A stretch of DNA of 64,000 bases. It comes from Xenophilus aerolatus. Its GTDB lineage: Bacteria > Pseudomonadota > Gammaproteobacteria > Burkholderiales > Burkholderiaceae_C. The notes beneath the pieces were generated by a model. That model was given only the letters and a program-made list of their open reading frames with translations. It was not told where the DNA came from and did not search any database. Below are positions 36,982 through 63,148 of the stretch, in pieces. The stretch covers positions 124,001 to 188,000 of the forward strand of contig JASCNX010000002.1 in assembly GCA_029968055.1 (NCBI GenBank). Reading direction: 5' to 3'. The position numbers and the translations under genes were made by a program. Numbering within the stretch: the stretch's first letter is position 1; every line of letters begins with the position of its first letter.

Positions 36982-37541
36982 CAGGGGGTCTTCGTGGTTT
37001 CGGGGTTCATCAGTTCGCGCAGCAGCGCGCGGCCTTCGGGCCAGTCGCCCAGGCCCGAGTCGGCGTTGACGTGGCCGCGCGCGCCCAGGTCGACGAAGCG
37101 CGCGCCCCAATCGGCCGCCAGGCCGCGGGCGCGCCCGGCGCTGCAATACGGGTCGTCGGTCGAGCCGACCAGGATCGCGGGGAACGGCAGGCGCTGGCGC
37201 GCGATGGGTGCCCAGCCGGGGATCTGCTGGCGCAGGTCGTCGCGCTCCAGGTCGCCGGGCGCCACGAGCAGTGCGCCCACGACCCGGTCGGTGTGGCGCG
37301 AATGCGCGGCCCAGGCGGCGACCAGCAGGCAGCCCATGCTGTGGGCCGCGAAGACGACCCGGCCCTGGGCGGCCAGCACCGCCTCCTCGAGCTGCGCCGA
37401 CCAGTCGCCGCGCAGCGGGCGCATCCAGTCGTGCTGCTGCACGCGCCGGTCGCCGTGCAGCGCCTCCCACCGGGTCTGCCAATGGCCGGGGCCGCTGTTT
37501 TGCCAGCCGGGAAGCAGGAGAACCTCGGGGGATGGACTCAT
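36981..37541 (-). CDS. RBBP9/YdeN-type alpha/beta hydrolase between parA and parB
   Basis: A 186-residue hydrolase of the RBBP9/YdeN group. It starts SPEVLLLPGWQNSGPGHWQTRWE, has the nucleophile elbow AAHSMGCLLVAAW and ends in a GARGHVNADSGLGDW His block. Proteins of this family are small serine hydrolases of unclear substrate. Its position between parA and parB, with the four-base overlap to parB, is a feature of beta-proteobacterial par clusters and suggests co-expression. No partition function is implied by sequence. Confidence 0.9.
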   Translation of the reverse strand: MSPSPEVLLLPGWQNSGPGHWQTRWEALHGDRRVQQHDWMRPLRGDWSAQLEEAVLAAQGRVVFAAHSMGCLLVAAWAAHSRHTDRVVGALLVAPGDLERDDLRQQIPGWAPIARQRLPFPAILVGSTDDPYCSAGRARGLAADWGARFVDLGARGHVNADSGLGDWPEGRALLRELMNPETTKTP

Positions 37542-37543
37542 TT

Positions 37544-37560
37544 GCTATTCTTTTGATAGC
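37544..37560. repeat. GCTAT-N7-ATAGC short palindrome, copy 1
   Basis: GCTATTCTTTTGATAGC, a five-base palindrome in the gap between the hydrolase start and the parA stop. The same TTGCTAT...GATAGCT pattern recurs at 41930-41946 in the opposite orientation. Short palindromes like these recur between genes in related genomes (recalled, not checked). Confidence 0.6.
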
Positions 37561-37583
37561 TTGTCACGCAAGCATGGCGGGCG

Positions 37584-38465
37584 CTACGGGCTGCTTTCGT
37601 CCGCAATACCGGATGCGGCGGGCGTTGCGGCCGGCACCACGGGCGGCGCGGCGACGGGCGGGGCCGGCTGCGCGAAGGCGCTGGCCGGCGGCATCTTCTT
37701 GACCAGTTCCTCGGCAAACGCGATGAAGGCCTGGCTGCCGCGTGCGGAGGGGTCGAACACCACGCCCGGCAGGCCATAGCTCGGCGCCTCGGCCAGGCGC
37801 ACGTTGCGCGGGATCACGGTGTCGAAGACCTTGTCGCCGAAGTGCGCCTTGAGCTGCTCGCTGACCTGCTGCTGAAGCGTGATGCGCGGGTCGAACATGA
37901 CGCGCAGCAGGCCGATGATCTGCAGGTTCTTGTTGAGGTTGGCATGCACCTGCTTGATTGTGTTGACCAGGTCGGTGAGCCCCTCGAGCGCGAAGTACTC
38001 GCACTGCATGGGCACGATCACGCCATGGGCGGCGCACAGGCCGTTGAGCGTCAGCAGGCTGAGGCTGGGCGGGCAGTCGATCAGGATGAAGTCGTACTCG
38101 GCGCCCACGCCGGCCAGCGCGGTGCGCAGGCGCTTCTCGCGGCGGTCAAGCGCGACCATCTCGACCTCGGCCCCGGCCAGTTCGCGGTTGGCGGCCAGCA
38201 CGTCGTAGGCTGCGCCGGCTTCCACCAGCTTGTCGGGGCGGATGCGCGTCTCGGCGACCGAGGCGGATTCGAGCAGCACGTCGTACACGGTGAGTTCGGC
38301 CTCGCGCTTGTCGACGCCCGAACCCATCGTGGCATTGCCCTGCGGGTCGAGATCGACCATCAGCACGCGCTGGCCGACCTTGGCCAACCCGGCGGCGAGG
38401 TTCACGGTGGTGGTGGTCTTGCCGACCCCGCCCTTCTGGTTGGCGATACAGAAAATCTTGGCCAT
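37584..38465 (-). CDS. parA: Chromosome partitioning ATPase ParA
   Basis: A 293-residue Walker-type ATPase with the deviant P-loop KGGVGKTT at residues 11-18, the VDLDPQGNATMGSG switch and Walker B-like DFILIDCPPSLSLLTL. It positions the ParB-parS complex and so the replication origin region. It is read with the hydrolase and parB downstream. The C-terminal 40 residues are Ala/Pro-rich and longer than in minimal ParA proteins. Confidence 0.97.
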   Translation of the reverse strand: MAKIFCIANQKGGVGKTTTTVNLAAGLAKVGQRVLMVDLDPQGNATMGSGVDKREAELTVYDVLLESASVAETRIRPDKLVEAGAAYDVLAANRELAGAEVEMVALDRREKRLRTALAGVGAEYDFILIDCPPSLSLLTLNGLCAAHGVIVPMQCEYFALEGLTDLVNTIKQVHANLNKNLQIIGLLRVMFDPRITLQQQVSEQLKAHFGDKVFDTVIPRNVRLAEAPSYGLPGVVFDPSARGSQAFIAFAEELVKKMPPASAFAQPAPPVAAPPVVPAATPAASGIADESSP

Positions 38466-38469
38466 GGGG

Positions 38470-39084
38470 TCACTGGCTCAGGGCGAGCTTGAGGCCGAAG
38501 CCGACCAGCAGGGTGCCGGCGATCTTCTCCAACGCGCCTGAGACTTTGGGATTGGCGCGGATGCGCTCGGCGAAGAAGTGCGTCAGCGTGATGGAGGTCA
38601 GACAGTAGGCCAGCGTGATGGCGGCAACGGTGGCGGCCATCACGGCAAAAGTCACGACGCCCTGGTGCCGCGCCGGATCGATGAACAACGGGAAGAAAGC
38701 CATGTAGAACACGATGGCCTTGGGGTTCAGCAGCGTGATGAGAAAGGACTGGCGAAGGTAGTGCCGCGGCTGGATCCGCAGCACCGGCCCGGCGCCCGGC
38801 TTGGCGCGCAGCATCTTGAGCCCCATCCACCCAAGGTATGCAGCGCCGAGCCACTGGGCCAGGTGAAAGGCCGTGGGGTACGCCGCCAGCAGGGCCGCCA
38901 CGCCGGCCACTGCCGACCACATCAGGACCTGGTCGCCCAGGATCACCCCCAGCGTGGAACCCAAGCCACCGCGCAGGCCGCCCTTGCCGGTCGAGGTGAT
39001 CAGGGCGAGGTTGCCCGGCCCGGGGATGAGCAGGAAGACGATGATGGCGACGACGAAGGCGCCGTAGTCCGCGATGCCGAACAT
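38470..39084 (-). CDS. LysE family exporter
   Basis: A 204-residue inner-membrane protein with six hydrophobic segments and the LysE/RhtB signature FLLIPGPGNLALITSTGKGGLRGGLGSTLGVILGDQVLMWSAVAG (about 17-60). Family members export amino acids such as lysine, threonine or homoserine lactones; the substrate is not predictable. It lies immediately before parA with a four-base gap and after rsmG on the same strand, a common Comamonadaceae arrangement. Confidence 0.9.
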   Translation of the reverse strand: MFGIADYGAFVVAIIVFLLIPGPGNLALITSTGKGGLRGGLGSTLGVILGDQVLMWSAVAGVAALLAAYPTAFHLAQWLGAAYLGWMGLKMLRAKPGAGPVLRIQPRHYLRQSFLITLLNPKAIVFYMAFFPLFIDPARHQGVVTFAVMAATVAAITLAYCLTSITLTHFFAERIRANPKVSGALEKIAGTLLVGFGLKLALSQ

Positions 39085-39174
39085 GAAGGAAGCCGCGCTG
39101 GGCCAGGAAGGGGAAGGCGACGAGTCTAAGTCAGTACGGCGTGATGGGCGCTGTCGGGCGCACGCCGCGCGGCC

Positions 39175-39807
39175 TCATTCGCCGCTTTTCCTTGCCCAGA
39201 CGATGCAACGCTCTGCGTCGAGCCCTGGAACTTCCAGTTGTTCCACGTGAAACACATCGACGGCCGGATTCAGTGCCTGAATCTCTTCCGTTGGCACCTT
39301 GCCCTTCATTGCCATCCACACACCGTCTTTGGCCAACAGGTGGCCCGATCCGGCGACGAAGTCGGCGAGCGATGCAAAGGCGCGCGAACTGATCGCCTCG
39401 TACTCACCTTGCAGGGACTCCACCCGCGCGTGGACGCCCCGAAGATTGGGCAACTTCAGTTCACCGGCGACCTGCTGCACGAAGGCCATCTTCTTGGCGA
39501 CGGCATCGAGGCAACTCACCGCGATGTCGGGCCGCATGATGGCAATCACCACTCCTGGCAGGCCGGCGCCCGCGCCGACGTCCAGCAGGCGGGTCGTGCC
39601 TGGCCGCTGCCGCGTCAGGGGCCCGATGGCCGCCAGGCTGTCGAGCAGGTGGTGCGTCCGCACGCTGGCTTCGTCCCGCAAGGCCGTGAGGTTGTAGACC
39701 TTGTTCCATTTCAGGATCAGCGCACCGTAAGCCTCCAGCTGCTCGATCTGCTGCGCGCTCGGCGCCAGGCCCAGCGCACGAGCGCCCTCCTCCAGCCCGA
39801 TCGTCAT
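39175..39807 (-). CDS. rsmG: 16S rRNA (guanine(527)-N7)-methyltransferase RsmG
   Basis: A 210-residue SAM-dependent methyltransferase with [22 protein letters not shown] as its SAM motif (about 73-95) and the family N-terminal [19 protein letters not shown] block. It modifies m7G527 of 16S rRNA. It overlaps mnmG by four bases. The gene carries a parS site (39239-39254) within its 3' part. Confidence 0.95.
39239..39254. promoter_or_regulatory. parS centromere site inside rsmG
   Basis: TGTTCCACGTGAAACA matches the conserved 16-bp parS consensus TGTTNCACGTGAAACA exactly. ParB loads here. It lies within the coding region of rsmG. Confidence 0.95.
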
Positions 39808-41747
39808 GCGGTCGCCGACTCGGTCGCGGAAGTCTGGAAAGCTTTGTAGCCGCCCTTGCGCAAATGGATCATGAGCAGCGATATGGCGGCCGGCGTGATA
39901 CCCGAGATGCGCGAGGCCTGGCCCAGCGTCTCCGGCCGGTGCTTGGCCAGCTTCTGGCGCGCTTCGATGCTCAGCGCCTGAACCTGCAGATAGTCCAACT
40001 CCGTCGGCAGGCGCAGGTTTTCGTAGGTGGCAGCGCGCTGCACTTCGTCATGCTGGCGGTCGATGTAGCCGCTGTATTTGGCGGCGATTTCCACCTGCTC
40101 CACCGCATCGGCGGCCAGCGACTGCTCGGGCGCGTACTTGCCGCCGTCCAGCGACAGCAGCGCCTCGTAGCTCACGCCGGGTCGGCGCAACAGGTCGCCG
40201 AGGTTGTATTCGTGCTCGATGGCCTTGCCAAGCACACGCTCGGACTCGCTCGCCGGCAAATTGCGCGGGTTCACCCAGGTCGACTTCAAGCGCTCTGTTT
40301 CACGTGAAACAGCGTCGCGCTTGCGGCTGAAAGCGTCCCAGCGCGCGTCATCGACCAAGCCCAGACGCCGACCAGCCTCGGTCAGCCGCATATCGGCATT
40401 GTCTTCGCGCAGCTGGAGCCGGAACTCGGCGCGACTGGTGAACATGCGGTAGGGCTCGGTCACGCCCTTGGTGATCAGGTCGTCGACCAGCACGCCCAGA
40501 TAAGCCTCGTCGCGCCGGGGCACCCAGGCCGATTCGCCCCGGCACTGCAACGCGGCGTTGATGCCGGCAAACAGGCCCTGCGCCGCTGCCTCTTCGTAAC
40601 CGGTGGTGCCGTTGATCTGCCCGGCGAAGAACAAGCCCTGGATCGCGCGCGTCTCGAAGCTGCTCTTGAGACCGCGCGGATCGAAGTAGTCGTACTCGAT
40701 GGCATAGCCCGGCCGCAGAATGTGGGCGTTCTCCAGCCCCGGCATCGATCGCACCAGCGCGTACTGGATGTCGAAGGGCAAGCTGGTCGAGATGCCGTTC
40801 GGGTAGTACTCGTTCGTCGTCAGCCCTTCGGGCTCCAGGAAGATCTGGTGGCTGTCCTTGTCGGCGAAGCGGTTGATCTTGTCTTCGACGCTCGGGCAGT
40901 AGCGCGGTCCCACCCCGTCGATCTTCCCTGTGAACATCGGGCTGCGGTCGAAGCCCGAGCGGATGATCTCGTGCGTGCGGGCGTTCGTGTGGGTGATCCA
41001 GCAGGGCATCTGCTCGGGATGCATGTCGGCGCGGCCCATGAAGCTGAACACCGGCATCTGGGCGGTCGCGCCGCCGGGCATGCCATCGCCCGGCTGCTCG
41101 GTGCACTTCGAGAAGTCGATGGTGCGGCCGTCCAGACGAGGCGGCGTGCCGGTCTTCAGCCGCCCTTGCGGCAGCTTCAGCTCCTTCAGCCGCGCCGACA
41201 GGCTCACGGCCGGCGGGTCACCCGCCCTGCCCGCTTGGTAGTTGTCCAGGCCCACGTGAATGCGACCGTCCAGGAAGGTGCCGGCCGTCAGCACCACCGC
41301 GCGGGCCCGGAAGGCAATGCCCACCTGCGTCACCGCGCCCACCACGCGGTCGCCCTCCACCATCAGGTCGTCCACGGCCTGCTGGAAGAGCATCAGGTTC
41401 GGCTGGTTTTCCAGCCGGCGGCGGATCGCTGCCTTGTAAAGAACGCGGTCGGCCTGCGCGCGCGTGGCGCGCACGGCCGGGCCCTTGCTCGAGTTGAGGA
41501 TGCGGAACTGGATGCCCGCCTCGTCCGTCGCGATGGCCGTGGCGCCGCCGAGCGCGTCGACTTCCTTGACCAGATGCCCCTTGCCGATGCCGCCGATCGA
41601 CGGGTTGCAGCTCATCTGTCCCAGCGTTTCGATGTTGTGGGTCAGCAGCAGCGTCTTCGCGCCCATGCGCGCCGACGCGAGCGCGGCCTCGGTGCCGGCA
41701 TGGCCACCACCGACGACGATGACGTCGAATTCTTCCGGGTACAGCAT
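39804..41747 (-). CDS. mnmG: tRNA uridine-5-carboxymethylaminomethyl(34) enzyme MnmG
   Basis: A 647-residue FAD enzyme that forms cmnm5U34 in tRNA together with MnmE. It has the dinucleotide motif [19 protein letters not shown] (about 9-27), [22 protein letters not shown], and the C-terminal helical tail ending [22 protein letters not shown]. It is the first gene of mnmG-rsmG, near the origin in many bacteria, and contains the second parS site (40296-40311). Confidence 0.97.
40296..40311. promoter_or_regulatory. parS centromere site inside mnmG
   Basis: TGTTTCACGTGAAACA is a perfect 16-bp palindrome and the optimal parS sequence. It is 1.06 kb from the parS in rsmG; both lie in coding sequence of the origin-proximal mnmG-rsmG pair. 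Confidence 0.96.
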
Positions 41748-41929
41748 GGTCAGGGTCGCGCAGTGGCCCGTCCGGCGGCGGACCCGCGCAGGCGGCCGCC
41801 ATCACTGCGTCGTTCAGAGGAGGAAAGGGCGTCGATTTTATTCGCCGCCGGCCTCACCTGCTCAAAATATGGGCATCCGCGTTCCAGGCGCGGCACCCTG
41901 CCGCAGTGCGCGCCGGCACTGCGTGATCA

Positions 41930-41946
41930 GCTATCAAAAATATAGC
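41930..41946. repeat. GCTAT-N7-ATAGC short palindrome, copy 2
   Basis: GCTATCAAAAATATAGC in the mnmG-transglutaminase gap, the same family as 37544-37560 but inverted. Its 3' context (ATAGCAAT) mirrors the 5' context of copy 1 (TTTGCTAT). Confidence 0.6.
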
Positions 41947-41963
41947 AATCCGTGGCGGGGCGT

Positions 41964-42887
41964 TCAGTCGCTCAGCGGTACCGTCTGCACCGGTGGCGGA
42001 TCGCACACCGGCGAGGTGCCGGCGGCCACCGGAACGGGCTTCTCGATGCCCACCACGATGCCGCTGGGCTCGGGCGGACGCGGTGCCGGAATCGCCTCGT
42101 TCTGCTTCTCGCGCACCACGATTTCCTTTCTGGTCATGGCGACCGGTCCGAAGATCGTGCAGAAGGCCACGTCCTTGGCGTCGCGTCCCGTGCCGACGCG
42201 CACCAGCCGGTCCACCGGCGCCATCCGCGTGGCGTCGAAGAGCACCCAGCGCCCGCCGATCCAGGCCTCGAAGACGGCATGGAAATCCTGCGGCGGCTCG
42301 TCGAACCAGACGTAGCCCACCACCAGCCGCGCCGGAATGTTCAATGCGCGGCAGAAGGTGATGCCCAGGTGCGCGAAGTCGCGGCACACGCCGGCGCGGG
42401 CCACGAACACCTCCTGCGCCGTGGTGGTCGAGTCGCTGCTGCCGGGCTGGTAACACAGGCTGTCGTGGATCCAGTCGACGATGGCCTGCACGCGGCCGAT
42501 GCCCGGCGGCAGGTCGCCGAAGAGCTGCTGCGCCGCCCGTGCCATGACGTCCGACTCGCAATAGCGCGTCGGCATGAGGTAGTGCATCAGCGCGTCGGGC
42601 ACCTGGTTGACCGGCGCCTCGGCCAGCTCGGCCGGCAGGCTCACCGGCGCACGCTGCACGCTGGCGCGGTAGCGGATGGTCAGCGGTCCCGGCTGGGCGT
42701 CGAAGCGCACGAAGCGATTGCCGCTGTTGTCGTCGCTGTAGTGATGCAGCGCGACCGGTGGTTCGACCTGCAGCGACTCGCTGAGGATCGACTGCGAGGC
42801 GCAATGCCCCGCTTCGATGTTCAGCAGCAGGTGCGACGGCGCCGTGACCTTGTAGTCGAGAACGGCATCGATGTGCGATTCATGCAT
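41964..42887 (-). CDS. Transglutaminase-like cysteine protease
   Basis: A 307-residue protein of the bacterial transglutaminase-like protease group. The predicted triad is Cys168 (ARAGVCRDFAHLG), His203 (DFHAVFEAW) and Asp218 (VLFDATR). The N-terminal 100 residues have the beta-rich IRYRASVQRAPVS lead-in common in this family, and the C-terminus has a Pro-rich tail. No signal peptide is evident. Substrate unknown; family members act on peptide or amide bonds. Confidence 0.9.
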   Translation of the reverse strand: MHESHIDAVLDYKVTAPSHLLLNIEAGHCASQSILSESLQVEPPVALHHYSDDNSGNRFVRFDAQPGPLTIRYRASVQRAPVSLPAELAEAPVNQVPDALMHYLMPTRYCESDVMARAAQQLFGDLPPGIGRVQAIVDWIHDSLCYQPGSSDSTTTAQEVFVARAGVCRDFAHLGITFCRALNIPARLVVGYVWFDEPPQDFHAVFEAWIGGRWVLFDATRMAPVDRLVRVGTGRDAKDVAFCTIFGPVAMTRKEIVVREKQNEAIPAPRPPEPSGIVVGIEKPVPVAAGTSPVCDPPPVQTVPLSD

Positions 42888-42965
42888 GACTGCCTGCGCG
42901 CCGTGGGCTGCGCAGCCTCCCTGACAGAGATCCGGAAAAATGGGTTGAGGGATGCCGGGCGCGGC

Positions 42966-43148
42966 TCAGGCCAGCGTCGGCAGCGGCAAGGGCCCGCGCC
43001 GCCCGCGGCGGCGTTCGGGCAACTGCCAGTTGGATTGGGTCACGTGCAGCACCCGCACCACCTGGTGGGCGGGCGACTGCAGCAACTGGCCGAGCGGGCG
43101 AACGCGCGGCCAGCGCAGGAAGCGGTGCGCGGTGTCGGTCGCGGGCAC
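42966..43148 (-). CDS. Possible small basic protein
   Basis: A 60-codon frame starting at GTG 43148, two bases after the stop of the DUF1328 gene, reading MPATDTAHRFLRWPRVRPLG, then HVTQSNWQLPERRRGRRGPLPLPTLA. The mix of aromatic and basic residues is more protein-like than neighbouring shadow frames, but no ribosome binding site or family supports it. Low confidence. Confidence 0.25.
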   Translation of the reverse strand: MPATDTAHRFLRWPRVRPLGQLLQSPAHQVVRVLHVTQSNWQLPERRRGRRGPLPLPTLA

Positions 43149-60898: not shown

Positions 60899-61318
60899 AT
60901 GAACACCCCTGCGCCGGTGGCCATCGGCACCGCGGCCGAACGCTCGGGCGTGTCGGCGCGCATGGTGCGCCACTACGAAGGGCTGGGCCTGCTGCCCGCG
61001 GTGGCCCGCACCGAGGCCGGCTACCGCCAGTACACCGCGGCCGACATCCACACGCTGCGCTTCATCAAGCGCGCCCGCGACCTCGGCTTCTCCATGGACG
61101 AGATCGCCGAACTCGTCGGCCTGTGGCACAACCGCCGCCGCGCGAGCGCCAGCGTCAAGCGCATCGCAAAGAAGCATCTGGACGACCTGGAATCGCGCAT
61201 CGCCGGCTTGCAGGCCATGCAGCGCACCTTGTCGCACCTCGTCCATTGCTGCCACGGCGACGGCAGGCCGGACTGCCCCATCCTCGACGACCTGGCCGGC
61301 GGCACGCCGGCGCCCTGA
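60899..61318 (+). CDS. cueR: Cu(I)-responsive MerR-type regulator CueR
   Basis: A 139-residue MerR-family regulator: winged helix IGTAAERSGVSARMVRHYEGLGLL (about 9-32), dimerisation helix and the C-terminal metal loop with Cys118 and Cys126 (CHGDGRPDCP), the same eight-residue spacing as CueR Cys112/Cys120. It responds to Cu(I), Ag(I) or Au(I) and activates copA and copZ. It is ten bases after copZ and is probably autoregulated from the same promoter. Confidence 0.94.
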   Translation: MNTPAPVAIGTAAERSGVSARMVRHYEGLGLLPAVARTEAGYRQYTAADIHTLRFIKRARDLGFSMDEIAELVGLWHNRRRASASVKRIAKKHLDDLESRIAGLQAMQRTLSHLVHCCHGDGRPDCPILDDLAGGTPAP

Positions 61319-61389: not shown

Positions 61390-61830
61390 GTCTCCCGCGT
61401 CTTCCTCATCCCCCTCGGGTTCTCCCCACAAAGCTTGGATAACTTTGTGGGCAACTCATGCACTTTGTTGTAAAGCTTTCGCAAGCTGTTGATTTATAAG
61501 GAGAAACAACAGTCTGCCACTTTTTTGTGCAGTGCACATTTCCGGCGGCGTGCCCGCCTTTCCCAGATTTCCGACGGCCTGTCAAAGGACAACTCTGGGG
61601 AGAATTTCCGCACAAGCGGGGCCTTATCCACAGGCCGGAGGCCCCGCTCGAGGTTGTTCGCCCGGCGGCGACAGCACGGACGCATGGGTGCGCACAGGGG
61701 TTGAGGCCCTGCAAGGCACTGTCGCCATTGGAAAAAACAGGCCTGTCCACAGCGGGGGCCGGCCCTTAGCTACTACTACTAATCTGAAATAGAAGACATA
61801 AGAGTGAATGCAAGGGGACAGCACCGTTGG
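61390..61830. other. Probable chromosomal replication origin (oriC)
   Basis: In an otherwise gene-free, locally AT-richer 633-bp stretch: an exact DnaA box TTATCCACA (61624-61632), a second box TGTCCACA (61744-61751), a GC-rich block GCGGGGGCCGGCCC (61752-61765) and the trio run CTACTACTACTAAT (61770-61783). An AT-rich patch follows. Box, GC block and DnaA trio in that order is the basal unwinding element of bacterial origins. Inverted box-like motifs (GGATAACTTTGTGG near 61437, GTGGGCAAC at 61447) and a DUE-like AT patch (61480-61530) add support. No dnaA gene is adjacent. Confidence 0.7.
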
Positions 61831-61951
61831 AAAAAAAGGCCGGGCCCGTTGCAGACGTGGGGTCCCGGGCGCCCAAAAGAAAAGGCCGACGGGTGCCGGC
61901 CTAAAGGAGGTGATGGGAAGAAGTTCGGCGGCTGGAGGCCGTCAGCGTGGC

Positions 61952-62959
61952 TCAGGCGCCGCGCACCAGCGCCATCACTTTTGCCGCATCCAGCGTCCTG
62001 GCCTGGGCCTGCATGTCCGGCAGGTAGCGCGACTGCAGCGTCTGCGCTTCCTGCACCACGCCCGCGAAGGCGTCTTTGAGCGTTTGCGCCGACAGCTGCC
62101 GCCCGCCGGCGTAGTAGCGCTTGGCCACATGGCCCAGCGCGTAGGTGCTGGCGAAGCTCATGCCCGAGCTCACGGCCTGCCGGCCCACGCCGCGCAGGAG
62201 CCCGCCGCCGACCTTGCCCAGCAGCCCGCCGAGCAGCTTGCGGCCTGCCTGCTCCAGGTACTGCGAGGTCAGGCCCACGCCGACGGTGGCCAGGAAATCC
62301 TTGATGTGGCCCTTGTCGAGCTCGTAGCCGTGGGCTTTGCCGACGCCGTACACCAGCTTCATCTGCAGCGGGATGATGGCCAGCGTGGACAAGGTCTCGG
62401 GCAGCAGCTCCAGGGCGCCGTTGAGGATCGACGCGCGCAGGATCTGCGCATCCAGCGCCGCCTCGTCGACCTCGGCCGCAGCCGGGGCGGGGGCCGTGGC
62501 CGGCAGGGATGCCGGCACCGGCACCGGGCCGGCCTGCACGGTGCCGATGCCGCTCAGCATGGCCTCCACCTCGGCGTTGTGCGCAAGGGGCGCCTCGGCC
62601 ACGGCCCGGGCCTGCTGGGCGAATTGCGCCGCCGGGCCGTCGGCCAGGCCCAGGGCACCCTGCAGTTCGGCCAGGAAGGCCTGTTCCGGCCCGCTCTGGG
62701 CGCCGTCGGCGTCGCAGACGCACACCGCCATCTCGTAGGCGAGCTGGCGCGCCTGCGGGCTCTGCAGGCCGGCCACGGCGTCGGCCAGCGAAACGCGCTT
62801 CATCAGCACGTCCTGGTACAGGCCCGAGAGGTCGCCGGCCTGGGCCAGCCCGTCGGCAATGCGGCGCACCTCGTCGCGCTCGCGGGCGTGTTTCTCGCCG
62901 TCGACGAAAGCGGCCATGAGGCAGAGGGTGACGATGCTGCGCGAATCCTGGGGTGTCAT
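61952..62959 (-). CDS. TerB-like protein with C-terminal DUF697-type region
   Basis: A 335-residue protein. The first 100 residues match the TerB-like helical bundle (SIVTLCLMAAFVDGEKHARERDEVRRIADGL, then MAVCVCDADGAQSGPEQAFLAELQGALGL). An Ala/Pro linker follows. Residues about 180-335 form a hydrophobic domain with ALELLPETLSTLAIIPLQMKLVYGVGKAHGYEL and repeated Gly-rich helices (LLGGLLGKVGGGLLRGVGRQAV), suggestive of DUF697-like membrane association. Function unknown. ATG 62959 is chosen by the family start; it borders the oriC-like region. Confidence 0.75.
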   Translation of the reverse strand: MTPQDSRSIVTLCLMAAFVDGEKHARERDEVRRIADGLAQAGDLSGLYQDVLMKRVSLADAVAGLQSPQARQLAYEMAVCVCDADGAQSGPEQAFLAELQGALGLADGPAAQFAQQARAVAEAPLAHNAEVEAMLSGIGTVQAGPVPVPASLPATAPAPAAAEVDEAALDAQILRASILNGALELLPETLSTLAIIPLQMKLVYGVGKAHGYELDKGHIKDFLATVGVGLTSQYLEQAGRKLLGGLLGKVGGGLLRGVGRQAVSSGMSFASTYALGHVAKRYYAGGRQLSAQTLKDAFAGVVQEAQTLQSRYLPDMQAQARTLDAAKVMALVRGA

Positions 62960-63148
62960 GCGGAAGCTCCTGAGGAAAGTGGAAATCGGATAGGGAATCG
63001 GATGCGGAATGGCAACAGCTTGCGGCCGCGGGGTCGCCGGCGGGCCCGTCAACCTCAATTACGTATTGAATACTTTCAGGCTACAAGCCACAATGCGAAC
63101 CCGCTCTGCCGTCTCATCCACCCCCTTTTTGCTCTTCGGAGAACGCCG

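What the first reader, a model, noticed from the sequence alone, without database searches (positions are those of the whole stretch)
61390..61830. Probable oriC with DnaA box, GC block and DnaA-trio, not next to dnaA
TTATCCACA and TGTCCACA boxes are followed by a GC-rich block and then CTACTACTACTAAT, the box/GC/trio order of the basal unwinding element of bacterial origins. mnmG, rsmG, parA and parB and two exact parS sites lie 20-25 kb away, as is usual near oriC. The neighbouring genes are cueR and a TerB-like gene, not dnaA, so origin and dnaA may be separated here.
Basis: partly seen in the sequence, partly recalled or inferred. Interest (0 to 1): 0.72.

Follow-up and report, generated by a model that had tools for sequence, protein, structure and literature searches.

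The report
Replication origin moved away from dnaA
This stretch is very probably where the chromosome of this Xenophilus bacterium starts copying itself; relatives carry the same sequence module beside the dnaA gene, far from it, at both places, or in several copies, so the start site appears to have duplicated and moved during evolution.

Summary
An exact TTATCCACA (61624-61632), CTGTCCACA (61743-61751), a GC-rich spacer and CTACTACTACTAAT (61770-61783) lie in a ~380-bp intergenic module, present once in this 5.12-Mb Xenophilus genome. dnaA is 58 kb away; its upstream region has two boxes and no box-plus-trio. The module is conserved in 15 of 15 genus genomes (own included); a profile of its right half matches 381 of 399 family genomes. 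Of 56 near-complete genomes, 19 have a module within 2.5 kb of dnaA (dnaN seen beside it in the 12 loci held), the usual oriC place; 37 have it only 14-299 kb away. Two genomes have both. In 18 of 18 displaced genomes with an exact parS (27 searched), parS is nearer the module than dnaA. 27 of 56 genomes have two or three modules; one Xenophilus has four, two Variovorax five (three full, two partial). Best reading: this is oriC, which left the dnaA-dnaN gap, probably by duplication and loss. Weak points: this genome's skew turns at neither site, trios are degenerate in part of the genus, replication was not measured. New variant of a known kind; whether spaced copies both fire is open.

The parts
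61418..61800 (+). conserved oriC module (whole)
   Evidence: conserved in 15 of 15 genus genomes, own included, in 1-4 tandem copies
61588..61797 (+). right half modelled as profile R1 (box, box, GC spacer, trio)
   Evidence: 381 of 399 family genomes
61420..61428 (+). DnaA-box-like TTCTCCCCA (2 mismatches)
   Evidence: CCCC core conserved
61434..61442 (-). DnaA-box-like TTATCCAAG (2 mismatches)
   Evidence: block GGATAAC largely conserved on +
61446..61454 (-). DnaA-box-like TTGCCCACA (2 mismatches)
   Evidence: block TGTGGGCAA largely conserved on +
61482..61494 (-). IHF-like site AATCAACAGCTTG (consensus WATCAANNNNTTR recalled)
   Evidence: 23 of 26 genus modules, 0.35% of shuffled modules
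61580..61601 (+). conserved block TGTCAAAGGACAACTCTGGGGA, overlapping a minus-strand box-like site at 61596
61624..61632 (+). exact DnaA box TTATCCACA
61743..61751 (+). DnaA box CTGTCCACA next to the unwinding element
   Evidence: TCCACA nearly invariant in A2
61752..61769 (+). GC-rich spacer ending in TTAG
61770..61783 (+). DnaA-trio-like CTACTACTACTAAT
60899..61318 (+). MerR/CueR-type regulator, left neighbour (present beside the module in 15 of 15 genus loci)
61952..63058 (-). TerB/DUF533-like gene, right neighbour here
39239..39254 (+). parS with one mismatch to TGTTTCACGTGAAACA
40296..40311 (+). exact palindromic parS
37584..38465 (-). parA (recognised by reading the translation)
39804..41747 (-). 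mnmG (recognised by reading the translation)
39175..39807 (-). rsmG (recognised by reading the translation)

Best explanation
The site is the chromosomal oriC of this Xenophilus genome. Proposed working: DnaA binds the box array, IHF bends the left half, and DnaA loads from the CTGTCCACA box across the GC spacer onto one strand of the CTACTACTACTA trio, which melts and receives the helicase. Shown here: the sequence elements, the near-constant length of the box-to-trio half, their conservation and their company (parS). Inferred: DnaA and IHF binding, melting and firing. The module is homologous to the one directly before dnaN in other genera. The likely history, inferred, is duplication to a distant site followed by loss of the dnaA-dnaN copy, with further tandem duplication in some lineages.
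For: Module conserved in 15 of 15 genus genomes, own included, and 381 of 399 family genomes (genomes that trained the profile match by construction). The right half is 207-211 bp long in all 40 aligned modules. In 12 of the 27 other-genus modules aligned the dnaN start (MIVLK...) follows within about 25 bp (loci L032-L058). Of 56 near-complete genomes, 19 have a module within 2.5 kb of dnaA and 37 only 14-299 kb away. G145 and G283 have both; their dnaN-side copies resemble each other (69%) more than each resembles its own far copy (58%). parS is nearer the module (2-44 kb) than dnaA (51-324 kb) in 18 of 18 genomes with the exact site, of 27 searched. Own genome: single R1 match and single box+trio pattern match. 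Upstream of dnaA: two boxes only in this genome and no box+trio in 460 kb of its contig except at the module; none in 26 assessable of 28 loci of relatives. Skew: in G003 cumulative GC skew is lowest in the 20-kb bin that begins at the modules, 211 kb past dnaA; in G085 it goes on falling past dnaA, is low from 240 to 400 kb and rises after the modules. In 20 displaced genomes GC skew is more positive between module and dnaA than beyond the module in 15 of 20 (p 0.036); GGGNAGGG 91:72 inside against 27:48 beyond (Fisher p 0.005).
Against: In this genome the GC and GGGNAGGG cumulative skews turn at about C2:280-320 kb, about 100 kb or more from the module and nearer to dnaA; within the window cumulative skew peaks near 40 kb. 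In G003 the third-position and GGGNAGGG sums go on falling to about 960-980 kb, 80-100 kb past the modules; in G085 the lowest GC sum is at 240-260 kb (-1845), the modules' bin being -1822. Inside-interval skew alone does not differ from zero (13 of 20 positive, p 0.15), nor beyond alone (12 of 20 negative, p 0.19). The first perfect trio starts 18 bp after the box, over the <=16 bp used in PMC8287927 unless TTA at 61766 is counted. Only 11 of 26 genus module copies have three perfect YTA triplets in a row after the box; 22 of 26 fit a looser trio. The backwards control of the box+trio pattern has one genome hit too. No replication or binding data.
Confidence: 0.9

Rival explanations
1. The module is a DnaA-titrating or DnaA-reactivating site (datA or DARS like), a remnant or copy of oriC, and the true origin is upstream of dnaA.
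For: DnaA boxes do lie upstream of dnaA (two in this genome; at least one in 26 of 28 loci of relatives). Some genomes keep a dnaN-side copy and a far copy. Skew in this genome turns nearer dnaA than the module.
Against: No box+trio upstream of dnaA in this genome or in the 26 assessable of 28 loci. The module keeps the unwinding element and is the only R1 match in this genome. parS lies nearer to it than to dnaA in 18 of 18.
Confidence: 0.06
2. The conserved block is a regulatory or small-RNA region for the cueR or terB neighbours rather than an origin.
For: Intergenic, conserved, beside cueR in 15 of 15 genus loci.
Against: No Rfam match in the window at gathering scores. The same block occurs before dnaN in other genera. 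Conservation is of DnaA boxes and trio at near-constant spacing.
Confidence: 0.02

Closest known systems
dnaA-adjacent bacterial oriC with basal unwinding system, BUS (B. subtilis type; PMC8287927, passages seen)
   Same: DnaA box, GC-rich spacer and DnaA-trio in the same order; homologous modules in this family lie between dnaA and dnaN
   Different: here 58 kb from dnaA, in one copy; relatives have tandem, spaced or inverted copies
E. coli oriC, separated from dnaA (separation noted in PMC8287927; distance of about 44 kb beside mnmG is recalled)
   Same: oriC and dnaA apart; an IHF-like site within the origin
   Different: here a clear trio, different neighbours (cueR, terB), and a relocation inside one family of Burkholderiales
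putative double origins in DoriC (Gao 2015, PMC4403523, part 1 of 2 read), including Ralstonia pickettii 12D
   Same: two candidate oriC on one bacterial chromosome
   Different: there separate predictions from boxes, neighbouring genes and skew; here the copies are homologous over about 200 bp and recur across many genera

Membership tests
bacterial chromosomal oriC with BUS | cluster of DnaA boxes in an intergenic region | tested here: met
   1 exact and 5 two-mismatch boxes, top-scoring cluster of 136 kb
bacterial chromosomal oriC with BUS | DnaA box, spacer, then at least three DnaA-trios | tested here: met
   61743-61783; spacer 18 bp to the first perfect trio, 14 bp to a preceding TTA; cut-off in PMC8287927 is 16 bp; degenerate trios in part of the genus
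bacterial chromosomal oriC with BUS | homology to origins of relatives at the canonical place | tested here: met
   same module directly before dnaN; 19 of 56 within 2.5 kb of dnaA
bacterial chromosomal oriC with BUS | GC-skew minimum at the site | tested here: inconclusive
   roughly fits the module in G003, G085 and a 20-genome test; not in this genome
bacterial chromosomal oriC with BUS | chromosomal parS close by | tested here: met
   21 kb here; nearer than dnaA in 18 of 18 displaced genomes with the exact site, 27 searched
bacterial chromosomal oriC with BUS | DnaA binding, unwinding and replication start | not testable with these tools
   needs marker frequency, footprinting, plasmid replication
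datA/DARS-type DnaA-binding site | DnaA boxes without an unwinding element (recalled definition) | tested here: not met
   a trio accompanies the boxes here and in most aligned relatives

The most novel reading that the evidence does not exclude
Some chromosomes of this family naturally use two or more homologous oriC modules, either tandem arrays of up to five or inverted copies 20-46 kb apart (G175, G322, G380, G283, G145), so that initiation is shared among several start sites on one bacterial chromosome.
Probability: 0.25. Interest if true: 0.9.

Novelty: new variant of a known kind. Interest (0 to 1): 0.72.

Why it matters
Origins are usually treated as sitting next to dnaA or in one fixed place per lineage. 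Here one family shows the module before dnaN, genomes with both a dnaN copy and a far copy, and genomes with only far copies, so how an origin moves can be studied step by step. [quoted passage not shown] By inference, records rotated to dnaA, and growth-rate estimates that assume the origin is at dnaA, can be off by up to 300 kb in this family.

Tried and rejected
Rfam search of the window: no match at gathering scores. Counting boxes alone: not above chance. Skew in this genome: turns at neither dnaA nor the module; reported as against. Third-position skew and ORF orientation in the same call were too noisy to use. One search aligned minus-strand loci unturned and was replaced. One search used a wrong frame for the window protein and was replaced. 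Clustering by flanking ORFs chained through antisense ORFs, so no count of relocation sites is drawn from it. Tree of 96 modules (of the 106 matches; L029, short and identical rows dropped), weakly supported: 6 label changes with two mislabelled loci (L105, L114), 5 after relabelling by dnaN match (L105 still counted as far although dnaA is in its locus); far modules as one clade not clearly rejected (p-AU 0.0504), so the number of moves stays open (about one to five). Order survey: 27 of 150 genomes match, 4 of them of this family, the other 23 weakly. Paper searches: among the titles listed (lists are capped: 20 of 81, 20 of 204, 15 of 104, 30 of 52, 1 of 1, 5 of 5, 10 of 114, 4 of 4) none is on displaced or repeated oriC in Comamonadaceae; only listings were seen except PMC8287927 and PMC6323995 (passages) and PMC4403523 (part 1 of 2). 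Subscription papers and DoriC itself were not searched.

Full report
Setting. The window is G000:C2:124001-188000 of a 5.12-Mb genome in 11 contigs. The exact species is not known.

Observation. Box number alone is chance level, but the cluster scores highest in the 136 kb scanned. Between cueR (60899-61318) and a TerB/DUF533 gene (61952-63058, minus) lies a module of about 380 bp. dnaA is at C2:243632-245014, with dnaN 62 bp downstream and rpmH on the other side (read from the sequence). That is 58 kb from the module, and the 62-bp dnaA-dnaN gap has no room for one.

Conservation. A DNA search finds the region in 15 of 15 genus genomes, own included. Alignment of 26 module copies from those 15 shows recurring elements: CCCC, GGATAACTTTGTGGGCAA, TTGTAA, TTGAT (an IHF-like site in 23 of 26), TCAAAG-ACAA--TGGGGA, a TTATCCACA-type box (exact TTATCCACA in 24 of 26), a second TCCACA and, in most, a trio. 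Copy number from the copies aligned: one in seven genomes, two in six, three in G001 and four in G014, at roughly 500-680 bp spacing. Not all copies are complete: G014d and G001a lack the trio, G014b has a broken one; 11 of 26 have three perfect YTA triplets in a row, 22 of 26 a looser trio; R1 scores G014 at three copies, not four.

Family. A sequence-only profile of the right half (R1, 210 positions, from 40 aligned modules) matches 381 of 399 family genomes, 345 of 350 good ones and 135 of 141 genera (training genomes match by construction). In the order survey 27 of 150 genomes match; the 23 outside the family do so weakly (at most 47.6 bits). Two of them (G438, G482) have the match 1.3-1.5 kb from the start of a single contig, a place typical of dnaA (not checked further).

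Place. I took the 53 genomes with one or two contigs, plus G145, G175 and G177, 56 of 399, all already known to match. R1 and dnaA were mapped in each. 19 have a module within 2.5 kb of dnaA, with dnaN found in the locus in the 12 of these 19 whose loci I held; 37 have modules only 14-299 kb away (G266, G134, G268 and G086 measured round the circle with approximate sizes). Where the module precedes dnaN, the start codon follows within about 25 bp in the cases I looked at. 27 of the 56 have two or three modules. G145 and G283 hold one copy at dnaN and another 24.5 and 28.7 kb away. Their two dnaN copies are 69% alike, while each is 58% like its own far partner; the far copy of G145 is, of the four compared, closest to that of this window (62%). 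This suggests that the duplication is older than these genera. G175, G322 and G380 have two far copies in opposite directions 20-46 kb apart. In named records, 38 of 80 terB loci carry a module within the fetched flank, and Variovorax sp. UMC13 and V. boronicumulans Xaverov 112 have five each, three full and two partial.

Is it the origin? Three tests beyond motif reading. First, homology with the canonical place, above. Second, parS: of 27 displaced genomes that I chose, 18 have the exact palindrome; in all 18 it is nearer the nearest module (2-44 kb, median 19 kb) than dnaA (51-324 kb, median 141 kb). These 18 come from nine genera, so they are not 18 independent events. Third, skew. In G003 cumulative GC skew is lowest just past the modules, though two other sums go on falling for 80-100 kb; in G085 it is low from 240 to 400 kb and rises after the modules; in neither does it turn at dnaA. 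Twenty displaced genomes chosen for long dnaA-module intervals favour the module modestly. This genome's own skew does not, turning about 100 kb beyond the module. The alternative place upstream of dnaA has two boxes here and no box+trio; in 28 loci of relatives, two not assessable because cut at a contig end and one with only 96 bp upstream, none has one.

Reading. This is oriC. Within the family it has left the dnaA-dnaN gap, and the two-copy genomes suggest duplication first and loss second. A tree of 96 modules needs about five changes of place, but is too weak to fix the number. Whether extra copies fire, or only one does, cannot be told from sequence.

Known or new. Separation of oriC from dnaA is known in E. 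coli (PMC8287927, passages) and reported for a cyanobacterium (PMC6323995, passages). Double origins have been proposed from predictions, with the statement that there is no evidence of two functional origins on one bacterial chromosome (PMC4403523, part 1 of 2). The searches listed under Tried and rejected, with their capped lists, showed no paper on this family's origin. I rate it a new variant of a known kind.

Noticed in passing
window 37000-43000: Cumulative GC skew of the window peaks near 40 kb, beside mnmG/rsmG/parAB and parS, the opposite turn from that expected at an origin.
   Followed up: partly
L059-L086, upstream of dnaA: A DnaA box (TGTGGATAA or TGTGGACAA on the dnaA strand) lies about 26-117 bp upstream of the first in-frame ATG of dnaA in 26 of 28 loci, the other two being cut at a contig end; probably the autoregulatory box.
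   Followed up: partly
window 61710-61737 and 61809-61836: Imperfect 28-bp direct repeat (71%) on both sides of the trio, ending in GGAAAAAA.
   Followed up: no
G014, C2, C4, C6, C8, C10: Twelve weak Bac_DnaA matches in 314-aa frames, 11 of them with the same score, perhaps IstB-like helper proteins of a multiplied insertion sequence (the identity is a guess).
   Followed up: no
L280: A MAG contig titled Bordetella parapertussis carries a terB gene 61% identical to the Comamonadaceae one, perhaps a wrong label.
   Followed up: no
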